Positions 732 through 25,825 of a DNA stretch of 26,193 bases are shown here, piece by piece. The translations under genes and the position numbers were made by a program. How positions within the stretch are numbered: the first letter of the stretch is position 1; the number at the start of each line of letters is the position of its first letter. The stretch is from positions 1-26,193 of the IMG/VR virus record IMGVR_UViG_3300028735_000031; one strand, written 5' to 3'. The DNA comes from a virus. Under the pieces are notes generated by a model that made no database searches, was not told the origin of the DNA, and worked only from the letters and a program-made list of their open reading frames with translations.

Positions 732-1274
732 GTGATTCTGAAATCGTTCGTGATCGGCCCGCCCGGGCAGGAGGTGGACCTTCTTCCGATGGTCGTGAAG
801 CAGGCCGCCATGTTTCAGCGCAGCGTGGGGAGTGCGGATTACGATGACGCCATCAGCGAAGCCGTGCTGCACACGATTCGCGGACTTCATCGCTACGATC
901 CATCCAAAGGAACGCGCTTCTCCACGTTCGCATTCCCCTGCATTCGCGGAGCCGCACTGGATCTCGCGAGGCGGGAAACGAGGTACGCATCGAAGCACGA
1001 GTTGCGGCAATCCATCGAAGACCTCGATCTGCACAGCTATGAGGACGAAAACCGGGATACGAGGATTCTGACAGAACGCGTGATGGCGGTCATAGATCGC
1101 TGCCTGGCGCCGAAGCTGGCGGCGGTGCTGCGCCTCACCTACCTGAGTGGATGGAGCGACCGCGAGATCGCCCGCGAGCTCGGAATTCGCGTGTCCAGCG
1201 TCGAAAAGGTGCGATCCGCGGCTCTGCAGGAAGTACGCCGTCTGCTTCAGGATTCCGACCTCGGGAGAATATAG
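732..1274 (+). CDS. Sigma-70 family RNA polymerase sigma factor-like protein
   Basis: A 180-residue protein with the two core parts of a small sigma factor. Residues about 36-88 resemble region 2: a DDAISEAVLHTIRGLHRYDP stretch followed by FSTFAFPCIRGAALDLARRE, the pattern that binds the polymerase clamp and melts the -10 element. Residues about 124-175 resemble region 4: a helix-turn-helix with LSGWSDREIARELGI and VEKVRSAALQEVRRLL, which would contact a -35 element. The start is GTG at 732, one base after the terminase stop, with GGAGGT at 721-726. It sits between terminase and portal, an unusual place for a regulator. By inference it could direct host polymerase to phage late promoters. It might instead be a sigma-like protein with another role; no target promoter is demonstrated. 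Confidence 0.82.
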   Translation: MILKSFVIGPPGQEVDLLPMVVKQAAMFQRSVGSADYDDAISEAVLHTIRGLHRYDPSKGTRFSTFAFPCIRGAALDLARRETRYASKHELRQSIEDLDLHSYEDENRDTRILTERVMAVIDRCLAPKLAAVLRLTYLSGWSDREIARELGIRVSSVEKVRSAALQEVRRLLQDSDLGRI

Positions 1275-1277
1275 GTC

Positions 1278-2558
1278 ATGGCATGGTATGATCGATGGCT
1301 GATGCGCTTCCGCCGCAAACAGGGCGGCCAACGATCCGGAGCTTTCGCGATGTGGGCGGGCTCCCCGTTCCGCAACCTCGGATTCAGCGAGAGCGTGAGC
1401 GAGGGCTACTACGCCTCGGTCTGGGCGCATCGCTGCATTATGAGGATCGCGGAATCCATCTCCAGCGTCCCGTGGAAGGTGCAGACGGATGCCGATGGCG
1501 ACGGCACGTTCGTTGACGAAGCCGGCCATCCTATTCAGAGGTTGATCGACCGTCCCAATCCCAATTCAGACCGGCGCGAGTTCCTCACCCAACTCGTCCA
1601 GAACCTGTATCTCGATGGCAACGCTTTCGTGGAGATCGTGCAGGATCGCGGCGTCCCTATGCACCTCTACCATATGCGCCCCGATTGGGTGCGGGTCGTG
1701 CCCGATCCCGTGCTGCATGTGGCGGGCTATGAGTTTCGACCTCCCGGCCGCAATCCGATTCCGTTCTCGCCGGAGGAAGTGCTGCATTTTCGTTTCGTGG
1801 ATCCTCTGGATCCCTACCGTGGCTGCTCCCCACTACGGGCTGCCATTCGCACGCTCGAAAGCGAGAACGCCATCGTGGCGTGGAACAAGAACGTGCTCGA
1901 TAACAGCGCCGTCCCCGGCGGCGTGCTCAAAGTGCCCTCCAGCTCCCTGTTGAAGGAGGACCGCGATCGTCTTCGCGAGGAGCTGATTCACGAATTCTCA
2001 GGCGGCAACCGCTACCGTCCGATGGTGCTCTGGGGAGATATGGAGTACGAACGGGCGGCGCTCAGTCACCACGACCTCGACTTCCTGGAGCAGCGCCGGA
2101 TCAACAAGTACGAGATCTGCGCCATTTTCGGCGTCCCTCCACAGCTCATCGGAGCGAACGAAGATCCGACTTACTCGAACTTCGAAATCGCGCGTCTGTC
2201 GTTCTGGGAGGACGTGATTATTCCTTTGCTGGACTGGATTCAGAATCGCTTGAACAACGCCATCGTTCCCCGGTACGGGGATCCGAACTCCATTCGCATC
2301 GTCTATGACATTTCCGATATCCCGGCGATGCGCTCCAGCTACGAACAGAAGGTGAAGACGGCCGAGGTGCTGTGGCGCATGGGCTGGCCGATCAACGAGA
2401 TCAACAGAAAGCTCAACCTCGGCCTTGCGCTCGTGCCTTGGGGCGAGACGGCATGGTTCCCCGTGAACCTGTATCCCGTCTCCGGGGCGGCGCCGCAAGA
2501 AACTCCCCCGAAGGCGGCTCCGCCTCCAAGCGATTCCGAGGAGGAGGATGTGTTGTGA
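1278..2558 (+). CDS. Phage portal protein (HK97 family)
   Basis: A 426-residue portal protein that forms the ring at one vertex of the head through which DNA enters and leaves and to which the tail joins. Recognisable family blocks, in order, are WAHRCIMRIAESISSVPWKV, a LIDRPNP stretch with LVQNLYLDGNAFVE, GCSPLRAAIRTL, a DNSAVPGGVL segment, and RRINKYEICAIFGVPPQLIG. The C-terminus is a short Pro- and acid-rich tail ending SEEEDVL. Length is normal for the family. The ATG at 1278 has GGGAG at 1263-1267 and lies 4 bases after the sigma-like gene. The stop overlaps the start of the amidase gene, implying coupled translation. Confidence 0.95.
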   Translation: MAWYDRWLMRFRRKQGGQRSGAFAMWAGSPFRNLGFSESVSEGYYASVWAHRCIMRIAESISSVPWKVQTDADGDGTFVDEAGHPIQRLIDRPNPNSDRREFLTQLVQNLYLDGNAFVEIVQDRGVPMHLYHMRPDWVRVVPDPVLHVAGYEFRPPGRNPIPFSPEEVLHFRFVDPLDPYRGCSPLRAAIRTLESENAIVAWNKNVLDNSAVPGGVLKVPSSSLLKEDRDRLREELIHEFSGGNRYRPMVLWGDMEYERAALSHHDLDFLEQRRINKYEICAIFGVPPQLIGANEDPTYSNFEIARLSFWEDVIIPLLDWIQNRLNNAIVPRYGDPNSIRIVYDISDIPAMRSSYEQKVKTAEVLWRMGWPINEINRKLNLGLALVPWGETAWFPVNLYPVSGAAPQETPPKAAPPPSDSEEEDVL

Positions 2559-3058
2559 AACTGGAAATCGTTCAGAAGCCGAGTCCGAACTACCGTGCTG
2601 TCAGGCGGGCTAACATCACGCATATCGTTCTGCACATCATGGATGGCACGCTGGCGGGGACCGATGCATGGTTTGCTTCCCCGGTCTCACAGGTCAGCGC
2701 TCACTACGGCATCGGACGGGAGGGACAGGTGCATCAGTATGTGGCAGAGGAATGCGAAGCCTGGCACTGCGGGCGCATTCTGAATCCCAGCGTGACGCTG
2801 CGCCGGGACGCCAACGGAGTCGTGCTGAATCCGAATTCCTACACGATCGGAATTGAGCTGGAGGGAAGGGCGGACAGCGATGTCACGATTCACCAGTACT
2901 ATGTGCTGGCTCTGATGCTGAAGGATCTTTCGAGGCGTCACGGCATCCCCCTTGTTCGCGAAAACGTCTGGCTGCACAGGGAGGTCTACGCGGCGAAATC
3001 ATGTCCTGGCAGATTGGATCGGGATCTCGCGCTGTCCTTGGCCGCACACTCCCTCTAG
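2555..3058 (+). CDS. N-acetylmuramoyl-L-alanine amidase (Amidase_2/PGRP fold)
   Basis: A 167-residue zinc amidase of the T7 lysozyme/PGRP type, which cleaves the bond between muramic acid and the peptide stem of peptidoglycan. The expected ligands are visible: His27 in IVLHIMDG, His141 in WLHREVY and Cys150 in KSCPG. Tyr51 in SAHYGI and Lys148 match the catalytic Tyr and Lys of T7 lysozyme. No signal peptide, wall-binding domain or membrane segment is seen. The frame is open upstream, but I place the start at GTG 2555, which overlaps the portal stop (GTGA) and has a GAGGAGG sequence just before it. Its 3' end overlaps the possible start of the next gene. It could be the endolysin or a virion enzyme that opens the wall during infection; its place among head genes makes both possible. 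Confidence 0.9.
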   Translation: MKLEIVQKPSPNYRAVRRANITHIVLHIMDGTLAGTDAWFASPVSQVSAHYGIGREGQVHQYVAEECEAWHCGRILNPSVTLRRDANGVVLNPNSYTIGIELEGRADSDVTIHQYYVLALMLKDLSRRHGIPLVRENVWLHREVYAAKSCPGRLDRDLALSLAAHSL

Positions 3059-4947
3059 ACGCCCCTATCGTTGTGAGGCGCGCGGAACGGGCGCTCCAGA
3101 TCTGGATTCACAGCGTTCACGAAGGCATCGAAGATTGGTGTCCCGTGCCAGAGGCCACGACCATGGCGCGGGAGATCGAAGTGCTGAACTGGAAGCGAAT
3201 GGAAATGGCGCGGCGACGTCTGGAGGCGCGTTGGATTCCGCGCATAGCGGAGGCCGTGCAGCGCGGGGCGGAAACGGCGGCTCGTCTGGCTCGAAGGGAT
3301 CTGACCTCCCTTCCCCAGGAGGCGGCGCGCGTTCTTGGCGAGGGGCTGAAGAAGGAGGTCTGGCGTCTGTATGAGGATGTCAACGACGCATTCTACCGGG
3401 ATTTTCAGCTGTTAGAGATCGATGACGGCCTCGCCAAAGCCGCGGATCCTATTGTGAATCCGCTTCAAGTGGAAAAGATCTACGAAAGGATCGAGCGACA
3501 ACTGGCCGAGAAGATCAAAGGCATCGATAGTGCCACGGCGGCTCAAATTCGCTCCGTGTTGACGAGTCACTATGCTAACGGGGATTTGGATGTTGAGAAC
3601 ATCATACGATCCCTGCGGGATAGCTACGCTTTCTCGCGCGCCCGCGGGGAGCGCATCGCCAGGACGGAAATCGTCTACATGGGCAACGCGAGCACGCATT
3701 ACAGCATCGAAATGAATGCGCGAACGGAGGTGATAACGAAATCCTGGTCCGCCGTGGGAGACGAACGAACGCGTCCGACTCATTCCACCGCCGACGGTAC
3801 GCAGCGCGATCTGCCGTTCAACAAGCCCTTCGAGGTAGGGGGCAGCCGCCTCATGTTTCCCGGGGATTCCTCACTCGGAGCCCCGGGACGCGAAACCATT
3901 CAGTGCCGCTGCACGGTGCTGTACGGCCGCCCGCGGCGTCGGGAGCCCGAGCCGCCTCCTCCGAAGCCCGAGCCACCTCCTCCGAAGCCAGCACCGTCTT
4001 CGCCAAAGCCCAAGCCCAAGCCGTCTCCGAAACCTGTCAGAACTCCAGCTCCAGCTCCAACTCCAGCGCCGGCGACCGGGGATCCGTTCGAGGAACGCCT
4101 CTGGGAGAGGGATCCCCAAGCCCACTATCAGGCTGTGAAGGAGCACGGCAAACGCATAGTGGATGAGATGATGAAACATCTATCCTACTACGCGGAACGG
4201 GAGGACTTTCTCGAACGCTATAATGAACTTGCCGACGAGATCAAGAAGGCGACTCAAGCTCGTAACATGGATCGAGCGAATGATTTGCAGCGCCGCATGA
4301 GGATGCTCCTTGAGTCTAACATCAAGTGGTGTGATCGCGTTCGAAGCGCTTTCGAACAAGTCCTCTCGCGCACCGTTCCCGCCGGGGGCAGGGAGCACAG
4401 GTTTGTTCCGACCTTCGATCCCAAGATGAAGAAGAACGACATCAGTCATGCGGAGAGCATGCTGAATTTCCTCTCGTCCGTTCTGCGCACAGACGAAAAG
4501 TCTCCTATGAAGATTAGCATCCATCTGTTGCCGAGCAACAGTCGCGCCTACGCTAAGCCTTGGGAGAATTCCGTTTTCGTTTCGCCAACCTCCGTACAAT
4601 ACATCTGGGACAACGTGTTGGCGCACGAGATCGGCCACGTGCTGGAAGGCAACCTGGAGCACATCGGAGTCGCGATCCGTCACCATTACGCCCTCCGCAC
4701 GAAGGGGGAGACGGCAAGACAGCTCGTCGGAGGGCGCTATCGTCCGAATGAAGTCACGAAGGTCGACCAGTTCGCCCTCGAGTATGCGGGCAAGTACTAC
4801 GGCCCGAATTCCAAATACACGGAAGTTTTCTCGACGACGATCGAAGCGTTGTTCAGCTCCGATCGTTTCCATCAGATAATGACCAAAGATCGGGAAACGT
4901 TTGAAGTGGTGCTCGGAGCACTAGCGTATGGCAGGAAATTTCCGTAA
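3001..4947 (+). CDS. MuF-type minor head protein fused to a C-terminal HExxH metallopeptidase-like domain
   Basis: A 648-residue multidomain protein. Residues about 150-308 are a MuF (SPP1 gp7-type) domain: IARTEIVY near 220, W-x-D-E-R-T-R-P-x-H, LMFPGD, and a closing CRC near 302. Residues about 313-360 are a Pro/Lys/Ala-rich linker. The rest is a separate domain with HEIGH at 542-546 in VLAHEIGHVLEG and a TEVFSTTIEALF segment with Glu608 as a plausible third zinc ligand, the pattern of a gluzincin-type zinc protease. MuF proteins sit in the head and can travel with the DNA, and MuF fusions to toxin domains are a known polymorphic toxin class. The start is uncertain: ATG 3001 overlaps the amidase by 58 bases and lacks a well-spaced SD; GTG 3073 or ATG 3163 (AGAGG at 3150-3154) are alternatives. 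MuF call firm, protease likely, toxin role inferred. Confidence 0.88.
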   Translation: MSWQIGSGSRAVLGRTLPLDAPIVVRRAERALQIWIHSVHEGIEDWCPVPEATTMAREIEVLNWKRMEMARRRLEARWIPRIAEAVQRGAETAARLARRDLTSLPQEAARVLGEGLKKEVWRLYEDVNDAFYRDFQLLEIDDGLAKAADPIVNPLQVEKIYERIERQLAEKIKGIDSATAAQIRSVLTSHYANGDLDVENIIRSLRDSYAFSRARGERIARTEIVYMGNASTHYSIEMNARTEVITKSWSAVGDERTRPTHSTADGTQRDLPFNKPFEVGGSRLMFPGDSSLGAPGRETIQCRCTVLYGRPRRREPEPPPPKPEPPPPKPAPSSPKPKPKPSPKPVRTPAPAPTPAPATGDPFEERLWERDPQAHYQAVKEHGKRIVDEMMKHLSYYAEREDFLERYNELADEIKKATQARNMDRANDLQRRMRMLLESNIKWCDRVRSAFEQVLSRTVPAGGREHRFVPTFDPKMKKNDISHAESMLNFLSSVLRTDEKSPMKISIHLLPSNSRAYAKPWENSVFVSPTSVQYIWDNVLAHEIGHVLEGNLEHIGVAIRHHYALRTKGETARQLVGGRYRPNEVTKVDQFALEYAGKYYGPNSKYTEVFSTTIEALFSSDRFHQIMTKDRETFEVVLGALAYGRKFP

Positions 4948-5224
4948 TCTTCCACAGTCCGCCAGGGCCGCCTTTCGCAGCCCATCGGGAACGGTATGCT
5001 GGCTGGATGAATCAGATATCTGGTTCACAACGCCGCCGAATGAAGAACTGGAAAAGCTCGTCCGTTTCTTCGCGCGGATCCATCAGAGGTACGGCCAGCG
5101 CTTCCAGGGACGGGACTACGATCCAGATCCTCTCTTCACTTACGCCAAATTCGTCTGCGACATGATGGACGGAACAGATCTCTGGGTGGACGAACAGCCC
5201 TTCGTCGGAGACGTCATATACTGA
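4928..5224 (+). CDS. Small orphan protein, candidate immunity partner of the MuF-metallopeptidase protein
   Basis: A 98-residue protein that I do not recognise. The start ATG at 4928 overlaps the last 20 bases of the MuF fusion gene, and a GGAG sequence at 4915-4918 is well placed. The sequence is soluble and rich in aromatic and acidic residues (WLDESDIWF, RDYDPDPLF, LWVDEQPF), with no membrane segment or signal peptide. Polymorphic toxins are usually followed directly by a small gene for a specific immunity protein, so its size, position and overlap fit that role. This is inference from context only. It could equally be a head accessory protein, since it sits just before the prohead protease. 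Confidence 0.7.
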   Translation: MAGNFRNLPQSARAAFRSPSGTVCWLDESDIWFTTPPNEELEKLVRFFARIHQRYGQRFQGRDYDPDPLFTYAKFVCDMMDGTDLWVDEQPFVGDVIY

Positions 5225-24193: not shown

Positions 24194-24328
24194 TTTCCGA
24201 GACCACAAAAGGGCGGACCGCCGTATCCGACGGTCCGCTGAGCTGTTCGCAGGAGTGCATCAGGGGCGCCTGATGGGTCTCGGGAAGGAGAAGTCCCTTT
24301 CGGAGGGAAAGCGACTATGGGCGCCCCT
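24194..24328 (+). ncRNA. Candidate structured leader RNA upstream of the helicase gene
   Basis: Several complementary segments fall in order. P1: 24194-24204 with 24276-24286 (11 pairs, one G-U; core CCGAGACC/GGTCTCGG). P2: GCGGACCG 24213-24220 with CGGTCCGC 24231-24238. P3: CATCAGG 24258-24264 with CCTGATG 24269-24275, directly abutting P1. Together these make a three-way junction. P4: CCCTTTC 24295-24301 with GGGAAAG 24305-24311, extended by AGT/ACT, holds part of the SD GGAGGG (24302-24307). AGGGGCGCC 24262-24270 can instead pair with GGCGCCCCT 24320-24328, which would destroy P3 and enclose the ATG at 24317. I do not recognise a known RNA family. Individual stems could be chance; the combination is notable. 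Confidence 0.4.
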
Positions 24329-25825
24329 AATGGGAGTATACGACAGATCGTACACTGTTTCAGTGCGCCGATGGAAATTTTCGCCACGCTGCACAATCGA
24401 ACGACGGTTCTTCGGCCCGCCGATGTTCGCCTGAAACGCGAGTTCTCCTACCTCGTGCCCGGCTCATGGTTCTCGCGGGCCTACCGGGAAGGACGGTGGG
24501 ACGGGCGGCGCTGCCTGATGAAGGGCGGTCGCGTTCCTACGGGATTGTTCCTTGCTCTTCGCAAGCGCCTGGAGGAGCGCGGATGGGTGTTCAGAATCGA
24601 CGACCGCCGCCAGGCCCCCCGGTTTCACGACATCGATGCCATCGCCGCCAGCCTTCCACAGGCGCGTCCTTACCAGATCGAACTCGTTAGAGCGATGGCG
24701 GATGCAGCCGGAACCGGCGGCCTCGTGTTGGCGGCGACGGGGACGGGGAAGACGTTCCTCGCGGGGATGTTTCTTCGTGCTCTCCGCGAAACCGCTCTCT
24801 TTCTGGTTGACGAACTGACGCTTCTGGAGCAGACCCGGCGCGAACTGGCGGCGGTGACGGGGGAGAAGATCGGGAAGGTAGGCGAGGGCGTGTTTGATCC
24901 CCGTCGCATCACGACGGCTACCGTTCAGACCATCAGTCAGAGCGACCGCCCGGGAATGCAGTCCTGGCTGGATTCGGTCGGCGTCGTGATTATAGATGAA
25001 GTGCATCTGGCGCTGAACGACCGCACACGGCGCGCCATTGCGCGCATTCATCCGTTGTGCGTCTACGGAATGACTGCTACGCTTCAAGTGGATCAGGATC
25101 CTGTTCTGTTCGAAGCCGCTTCCATGTGCGGTCCAGTGATCGGAACGTATGAGTATGAACGCGCGTTGGAATCCGGTCACCTTTGCGCTGGCGTATTGGC
25201 TGCGGCGGATTACGAACGGGATATCAATGGCAAGGCGGATTCGTGGGCGGAGCAGTACGAGAAATTCATAGTTCGAAGCCGAACTCGTAACGATTTCATC
25301 GAGGCCATCGCGCGTCTTGCCGTGGCGGATGGACGACGGATCTGCATCCTCGTTTCCAGGATTCGTCACCTGAAAATTCTGCAACGGCGCCTGGCGGATC
25401 TGCCGTGCGAGACGGTGTACGGGGAGGTGGACAGCCGTCAGCGGGACGCGGCGCGCCTTCGAATGGATGGGGGCGCTACGCGAATTATCCTGGCGAACCG
25501 CGTCTTTGAGAAGGGCGTGAACATTCGCTCGCTGGATACGATCATCGATGCCACAATGGGACGCAACGCCAACGCGGTCCGTCAGCGTTTCGGCCGCGGC
25601 GTTCGCATCCTGCAAGGGAAACACGAGCTCGTCTATGTGGATATCGGGGATGTCCGCCAGCATGAATCCAACCGCTTCGCTTCGACAACGGAAGCCCGTC
25701 GCAGCTCCCTCCTCAGAATGAACGTTCCGATAATCGCCTCCGTGCGATTCAGACAGGGGCAAGCCGCGGATGCGGCGCGCCGCTTCTGGGATAGTATACG
25801 ATCCCACATCCGTCGTTCCTCCTGA
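24317..25825 (+). CDS. UvsW-like SF2 DNA/RNA helicase
   Basis: A 502-residue superfamily 2 helicase. An N-terminal part (about residues 19-115) resembles the UvsW-type opening (FSYLVPGSWFSRAYREGRWDGR, GGRVPTGLF). The motor follows: Walker A AATGTGKT at 139-146, DEVH at 227-230 (DExH motif II), GMTATL as motif III, and QRFGRGVR as motif VI. T4 UvsW unwinds R-loops and branched DNA and helps switch replication mode, so a role in replication or recombination is likely. ATG 24317 has GGAGGG at good spacing, though that SD lies in a potential hairpin; ATG 24371 is in frame and begins the conserved-looking sequence but lacks an SD. It is the first non-structural gene after the tail module. The stop lies inside a hairpin that also covers the next SD. 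Confidence 0.9.
   Translation: MGAPNGSIRQIVHCFSAPMEIFATLHNRTTVLRPADVRLKREFSYLVPGSWFSRAYREGRWDGRRCLMKGGRVPTGLFLALRKRLEERGWVFRIDDRRQAPRFHDIDAIAASLPQARPYQIELVRAMADAAGTGGLVLAATGTGKTFLAGMFLRALRETALFLVDELTLLEQTRRELAAVTGEKIGKVGEGVFDPRRITTATVQTISQSDRPGMQSWLDSVGVVIIDEVHLALNDRTRRAIARIHPLCVYGMTATLQVDQDPVLFEAASMCGPVIGTYEYERALESGHLCAGVLAAADYERDINGKADSWAEQYEKFIVRSRTRNDFIEAIARLAVADGRRICILVSRIRHLKILQRRLADLPCETVYGEVDSRQRDAARLRMDGGATRIILANRVFEKGVNIRSLDTIIDATMGRNANAVRQRFGRGVRILQGKHELVYVDIGDVRQHESNRFASTTEARRSSLLRMNVPIIASVRFRQGQAADAARRFWDSIRSHIRRSS

What the first reader, a model, noticed from the sequence alone, without database searches (positions are those of the whole stretch)
3001..4947. MuF head protein carrying a metallopeptidase-like C-terminus: candidate phage-borne polymorphic toxin
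Seen: a full MuF domain, a 50-residue Pro/Lys-rich linker, then a distinct 290-residue domain with HEIGH (542-546) and a downstream TEVFS Glu608. Known: MuF polymorphic toxins are phage head proteins fused to variable toxin domains, and zinc peptidase domains occur among bacterial polymorphic toxins. Inference: the C-terminal domain is packaged with the head and delivered into the next host cell, or used against competitors. The metallopeptidase type of tip is the less described variant.
Basis: partly seen in the sequence, partly recalled or inferred. Interest (0 to 1): 0.75.

Follow-up and report, generated by a model that had tools for sequence, protein, structure and literature searches.

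The report
Phage head protease with tail-plug partner
This phage gene encodes a minor head protein carrying a zinc-protease domain, a predicted but untested class of phage toxin, and the small gene after it ends in an isoleucine/valine-tyrosine or -phenylalanine tip that recurs beside relatives of this protease in very different phages, which suggests a built-in safety plug that can be tested directly.

Summary
ORF 3001-4947 has a MuF domain, a Pro/Lys linker and a C-terminal domain with HEIGH 542-546 and Glu608. AlphaFold2 folds residues 361-648 confidently. A helical lead-in is followed by a zincin core; the best solved matches are M34-type metalloproteases, at borderline Z. In 33 aligned relatives His542, Glu543, His546, Arg566 and Glu608 are invariant.

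MuF plus metallopeptidase is not new: Jamet 2017 found it in 20% of 191 predicted MuF toxins.

Two results go further. First, the domain moves as a cassette: a ~96%-identical C-terminus plus its downstream gene sits on MuF N-termini only 21% identical. Second, the overlapping 98-aa gene 4928-5224 belongs to a class of small partners that mostly end in aliphatic-aromatic (VIY, IIF, AIY): 19 of 25 partner clusters, 14 of 16 in loci fetched after I noticed it, against ~9.5% background and 1 of 30 MuF genes lacking this zincin.

Best reading: a head-borne zincin effector, held inactive in the producing cell by a partner whose C-terminal tip occupies its active site. Delivery, toxicity and inhibition are inferred. 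A zincin-partner fusion model was inconclusive about the tip.

The parts
3001..4947 (+). MuF minor head protein with C-terminal zincin (648 aa)
3544..3918 (+). MuF domain, residues 182-306 (PF04233)
   Evidence: PHROG head morphogenesis families
3934..4083 (+). Pro/Lys-rich linker, residues about 312-361, variable length against L002
4081..4395 (+). Helical lead-in of the C-terminal region, residues about 361-465
   Evidence: AlphaFold2 model
4396..4944 (+). Zincin core, residues about 466-648
4624..4638 (+). HEIGH, residues 542-546: HExxH zinc ligands and general base, invariant in the family
4822..4824 (+). Glu608, predicted third zinc ligand, invariant in the family
4928..5224 (+). 98-aa partner gene overlapping the MuF gene by 20 bp; candidate immunity or inhibitor protein; no Pfam, PHROG, NCBIfam or PADLOC family
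   Evidence: dN/dS 0.11
5207..5221 (+). C-terminal tip GDVIY of the partner; aliphatic-aromatic end shared by most partners of this zincin family
1278..2558 (+). Portal protein gene (context)
   Evidence: PF04860
5249..6244 (+). HK97-type prohead protease gene (context)
   Evidence: PF04586, TIGR01543
6287..7528 (+). HK97-type major capsid protein gene (context)
   Evidence: PF05065

Best explanation
The gene pair 3001-4947 / 4928-5224 is an effector-immunity cassette built into the head module of a siphovirus-like phage. The MuF part places the protein in the virion, and the C-terminal zincin is an active zinc endopeptidase of a phage-specific family. It enters the next cell with the DNA and cuts a host or rival-element protein. 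In the producing cell the enzyme is held off by the small partner made from the overlapping gene, whose C-terminal aliphatic-aromatic tip lies in or beside the active-site groove. Shown here: the architecture, the zincin fold and conserved catalytic residues, cassette exchange between carriers, a linked small partner, and its recurrent C-terminal tip. Inferred: packaging, ejection, proteolysis, toxicity, and that the partner is an inhibitor acting through its tip.
For: Model of residues 361-648: pLDDT 87.6, pTM 0.85. The best PDB alignments in the second look are all M34-type metalloprotease catalytic domains (Z up to 8.3, 168 residues). Foldseek against viral models finds other phage proteins, including a head-morphogenesis protein (E 7.5e-5). 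HExxH, Arg566 and Glu608 are invariant in 33 aligned sequences. Purifying selection: dN/dS 0.18 (domain) and 0.11 (partner). Cassette exchange: L009 against Lactococcus phage 62503, MuF N-terminus 21% identical, C-terminus about 96% identical, partners nearly identical; L053 has portal, MuF and zincin in one protein. Partner tip: 19/25 clusters end Y/F against 9.5% background, P 4e-15; 14/16 clusters in loci fetched after the pattern was noticed, P 5e-13; 9/15 groups sharing no detectable body homology, P 2e-6. Control: 1/30 Lactobacillales MuF genes without this zincin, against 6/7 with it, P 2e-5. Codons and stops at the tip differ between phages, so it is conserved at protein level. Precedent: the immunity protein IapK blocks the active site of the MuF toxin Apk2 (PMC12226406); two small adjacent ORFs neutralise the MuF toxin Bxa (PMC11699363).
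Against: No data on the virion, toxicity or cleavage. The zincin-partner fusion model left the partner and its tip at low confidence, so docking is neither supported nor excluded. Some family members do not fit: L006 (..VVPE), L070 (..DTIT), L082 (..KVH), L020 (a 47-aa ORF 125 bp downstream ending ..AIV), L058 (no partner found), and the non-MuF copies on phage-like plasmids L021-L024. Planktothrix-type phages carry the domain outside MuF, in three tandem copies with one partner. MPTase domains in phage polyvalent proteins have been proposed to self-process instead (PMC5512222). PDB Foldseek gave no significant hit, and Z near 8 is borderline by the tool's own note.
Confidence: 0.5

Rival explanations
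1. The zincin is a maturation or self-processing peptidase: it cleaves its own linker or neighbouring head proteins during assembly or ejection, and the partner is an assembly factor or substrate whose tip is recognised or trimmed by it.
For: Polyvalent-protein MPTases are proposed to act by autoproteolysis, and P1 DdrB is cleaved before encapsidation (PMC5512222). The gene lies in the head operon, and the linker is a natural cleavage site. An aromatic C-terminal tip could also be a substrate mimic.
Against: The phage has its own HK97-type prohead protease. The cassette is exchanged between unrelated MuF carriers, which is unexpected for an assembly function. Most MuF proteins searched in Lactobacillales lack it.
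Confidence: 0.25
2. The injected zincin is a counter-defence or takeover enzyme rather than a toxin: it cleaves a host defence or regulatory protein early in infection, and the partner only prevents premature activity.
For: Jamet et al. suggest that mildly toxic MuF peptidases may steer lysis or lysogeny, or resist host defences (PMC5576092). The domain also occurs in large phages next to internal head proteins (Xanthomonas phage Rb1).
Against: Nothing in the sequence names a substrate. Exchangeable effector-partner cassettes fit toxin-immunity at least as well.
Confidence: 0.35
3. The partner's acidic, hydrophobic-aromatic tip is a docking peptide for a host protein (compare the C-terminal tip of bacterial SSB) and has no contact with the zincin.
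For: Tips such as ..DEDIVY..DDFIFY and ..DEPKDAIY look like SSB-type interaction tips; this comparison is from memory and untested.
Against: The tip tracks this zincin family and not MuF genes in general (1/30); many members lack the acidic stretch (..KLIF..TYYF).
Confidence: 0.12

Closest known systems
MuF polymorphic toxins (Jamet et al. 2017, PMC5576092; Zhang et al. 2012, PMC3482391)
   Same: MuF head domain with a C-terminal enzymatic extension next to the portal gene, followed by a small ORF; metallopeptidase tips were counted there (20% of 191).
   Different: Those toxins were mostly in Firmicutes temperate phages with partners only inferred; here the partner class and its shared C-terminal tip are described. 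Host and lifestyle of this phage are unknown.
Apk2 MuF toxins with IapK immunity (PMC12226406) and Bxa with two immunity proteins (PMC11699363)
   Same: MuF carrier, variable C-terminal effector, adjacent small immunity genes; IapK blocks the active site.
   Different: The effectors are a (p)ppApp synthetase and an ADP-ribosyltransferase, not a zincin; no shared immunity tail is described in the passages read.
Zincin-like MPTases of phage polyvalent proteins (Iyer et al. 2017, PMC5512222)
   Same: Phage-delivered HExxH...E zincins with anthrax lethal factor as the nearest solved relative in their profile search, as in our fold comparison.
   Different: Those are many-domain proteins, often seen as self-processing; here a single zincin caps a minor head protein and has a dedicated partner.
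M34 metalloproteases (anthrax lethal factor catalytic domain, Certhrax)
   Same: Highest structural alignments (Z 7.4-8.3).
   Different: About 10% identity, borderline Z, different delivery; no membership is claimed.

Membership tests
MuF polymorphic toxin | N-terminal MuF domain above the curated cut-off | tested here: met
   PF04233 43.3 bits against cut-off 29.6
MuF polymorphic toxin | Gene in the head/packaging module close to portal and terminase | tested here: met
   terminase, portal, MuF, prohead protease, capsid in order
MuF polymorphic toxin | C-terminal domain exchanged between different carriers | tested here: met
   Shown for the family, not for this phage: L009 against L003, portal-MuF fusion L053
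MuF polymorphic toxin | Small downstream ORF encoding an immunity protein | tested here: inconclusive
   Small overlapping ORF present and conserved; immunity not testable here
MuF polymorphic toxin | Toxic activity of the C-terminal domain | not testable with these tools
   Needs expression in a laboratory strain
MuF polymorphic toxin | Temperate phage | tested here: inconclusive
   The 26-kb record is a fragment covering head, tail and a helicase; no integrase was recognised among the genes examined
Zincin metallopeptidase superfamily | HExxH on one helix plus a zinc-binding Glu on a later helix | tested here: met
   Sequence, invariance and model helices; the zinc geometry itself could not be measured because coordinates are not released
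M34 (lethal factor-type) peptidases | Significant structural or sequence match | tested here: inconclusive
   Z 8.3 over 168 residues, but borderline; Foldseek E not significant; no sequence match
Polyvalent-protein MPTases | Membership in one of the 12 published clades | not tested
   The published alignments are not held here; Xanthomonas phage Rb1 carries the same domain next to a chromatin-remodeling ATPase gene

The most novel reading that the evidence does not exclude
Phage-carried zincins of this family share one inhibition mechanism across Bacillota, Bacteroidota and cyanobacterial phages: small partner proteins of unrelated bodies carry a common C-terminal aliphatic-aromatic tip that plugs the protease active site. 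Immunity is therefore encoded in the last few residues, and such toxins can be found by their plug.
Probability: 0.35. Interest if true: 0.72.

Novelty: new variant of a known kind. Interest (0 to 1): 0.52.

Why it matters
Metallopeptidase MuF toxins were predicted in 2017, but their immunity proteins were identified only by position and size. A shared C-terminal tip gives a concrete, single-residue-testable hypothesis for how such enzymes are kept silent in the producing cell. It also gives a search handle for unannotated toxin-immunity pairs, and a candidate natural peptide inhibitor of a lethal-factor-like protease fold.

Tried and rejected
Single-protein scans of viral contigs found only the sister phage L002. 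Alignment A2 and, for genomes, A3 were too divergent for the pattern search. PDB sequence search gave nothing; Foldseek on PDB had no hit under 0.001. Pfam, NCBIfam and PADLOC have no model for the C-terminal domain or the partner. A zincin-partner fusion model, made by reading through the in-frame stops of L009, was too uncertain at the tip. Profile comparison of window, Planktothrix-type, Bacteroidetes-type and Firmicutes-type partner bodies gave no significant homology, so my early impression that window and Planktothrix partners are homologous is not supported. Rejected: a nucleotide-level origin of the tip, since codons, stops and following sequence differ; a generic property of genes after MuF. 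The host could not be determined. Most of a genome sample lacks the family (5 of 395 Lactobacillales).

Full report
OBSERVATION. ORF 3001-4947 encodes 648 residues. The window is a virus record, a fragment of a siphovirus-like phage: terminase, a sigma-factor-like gene, portal, an amidase, MuF, a 98-aa ORF, prohead protease, capsid, connectors, tape measure and tail genes, a helicase.

FOLD AND ACTIVE SITE. AlphaFold2 on residues 361-648 with 32 relatives gives pLDDT 87.6 and pTM 0.85: a helical lead-in, then a mixed sheet, a helix with HExxH and a later helix with Glu608. In the second-look alignment the top rows are the catalytic domain of anthrax lethal factor (Z 8.3, 168 residues) and Certhrax (Z 7.4). 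The tool's note calls Z near 8 borderline and plain Foldseek gave no significant PDB match, so I claim the zincin superfamily, not the M34 family. Structural matches among viral models include other uncharacterised phage proteins and a head-morphogenesis protein.

THE FAMILY. Relatives were found in Lactococcus phages 62503 and 50902, Streptococcus pyogenes prophages, Bacillus, Flavobacterium, Planktothrix and Xanthomonas phages, phage-like plasmids, prophages of Enterococcus, Lactobacillus and Streptococcus, and many IMG/VR contigs. Over 33 sequences the invariant residues (window numbering, converted from the alignment) are His542, Glu543, His546, Arg566, Glu584, Asp589, Tyr595, Gly597, Glu608 and Asp630; Glu549, Thr567, Tyr580, Thr586, Lys587, Lys598 and Tyr600 are nearly so. 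Pfam, NCBIfam and PADLOC do not model the domain; four PHROGs touch it without a function beyond 'minor head protein'.

CASSETTE EXCHANGE. Viral contig L009 and Lactococcus phage 62503 have MuF N-termini 21% identical, but the whole C-terminal region is about 96% identical and the partner genes are nearly identical. In L053 the same domain caps a portal-MuF fusion. This is the polymorphic-toxin signature, shown for the family rather than for this phage itself.

THE PARTNER. The gene 4928-5224 overlaps the MuF gene by 20 bp and ends ..VGDVIY. Small genes stand in the same place after nearly all relatives, often with a 4-bp overlap. After seeing similar tips in the first loci I fetched more and tested the pattern. 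Of 25 clusters (under 50% identity) 19 end in Tyr or Phe, background 9.2-9.5%. In the 16 clusters that came in after the pattern was noticed, 14 do. Grouping with the last five residues removed leaves 15 groups without detectable body homology, 9 of them ending in Tyr or Phe (P 2e-6). Profile comparisons of the main body types show no homology. Position -2 is Ile or Val in 14 of 25 clusters. Codons, stop codons and following DNA differ. In 30 Lactobacillales MuF genes without this zincin the next small ORF ends in Tyr or Phe once, and that gene has a different HExxH domain. The control ORFs were picked mechanically, so single assignments may be wrong. Exceptions are L006, L070, L082, L020, L058 and the plasmid copies.

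MECHANISM. Established MuF toxins (Apk2, Bxa) have adjacent immunity proteins, and IapK occludes the Apk2 active site (PMC12226406, PMC11699363). By analogy the partner here is most likely the inhibitor, and the recurring tip the part that meets the protease. This is inference: the only structural test available, a single-chain fusion of the L009 zincin and its partner, left the partner's tip below pLDDT 50. Alternatives are self-processing in the head, counter-defence cleavage, or a tip that docks to a host protein.

KNOWN VERSUS NEW. MuF-metallopeptidase fusions were counted by Jamet et al. (20% of 191 predicted MuF toxins), and zincins are the commonest domain of phage polyvalent proteins. 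The window protein is therefore another member of a predicted class. The element I did not find described in the papers searched is the partner class with its shared C-terminal tip. Searches covered open-licence papers only, so prior description elsewhere is possible.

VERDICT. A real MuF-zincin effector gene with a linked partner: new variant of a known kind. The toxin label is plausible but untested; the partner tip is the most valuable lead.

Noticed in passing
window 2372-3058: An N-acetylmuramoyl-L-alanine amidase/endolysin-like gene sits between portal and MuF (PHROG endolysin families up to E 6e-18); the sister phage L002 keeps it in the same place. An odd location for a lysis gene; possibly a virion-associated muralytic enzyme.
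   Followed up: no
window 732-1274: A sigma-factor-like gene (PHROG sigma factor E 3e-17) between the large terminase and the portal gene.
   Followed up: no
L013 4992-9133 and L004 3281-5803: Planktothrix-type phages carry the zincin domain outside MuF; in L013 three tandem copies surround a single partner gene ending ..EIVY, and the annotated L004 shows two of them before its partner ending ..DIVY.
   Followed up: partly
L053 1292-4408: Portal, MuF and zincin fused in one 1037-aa protein, followed by a 77-aa partner ending ..GTNY.
   Followed up: partly
L083-L128 (MuF control loci): Ten of 30 small ORFs downstream of MuF genes without this zincin end in Asp; unexplained and untested for significance.
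   Followed up: no
window 24317-25825: A DNA helicase-like gene (PHROG E 2e-49) follows the tail genes on the same strand.
   Followed up: no
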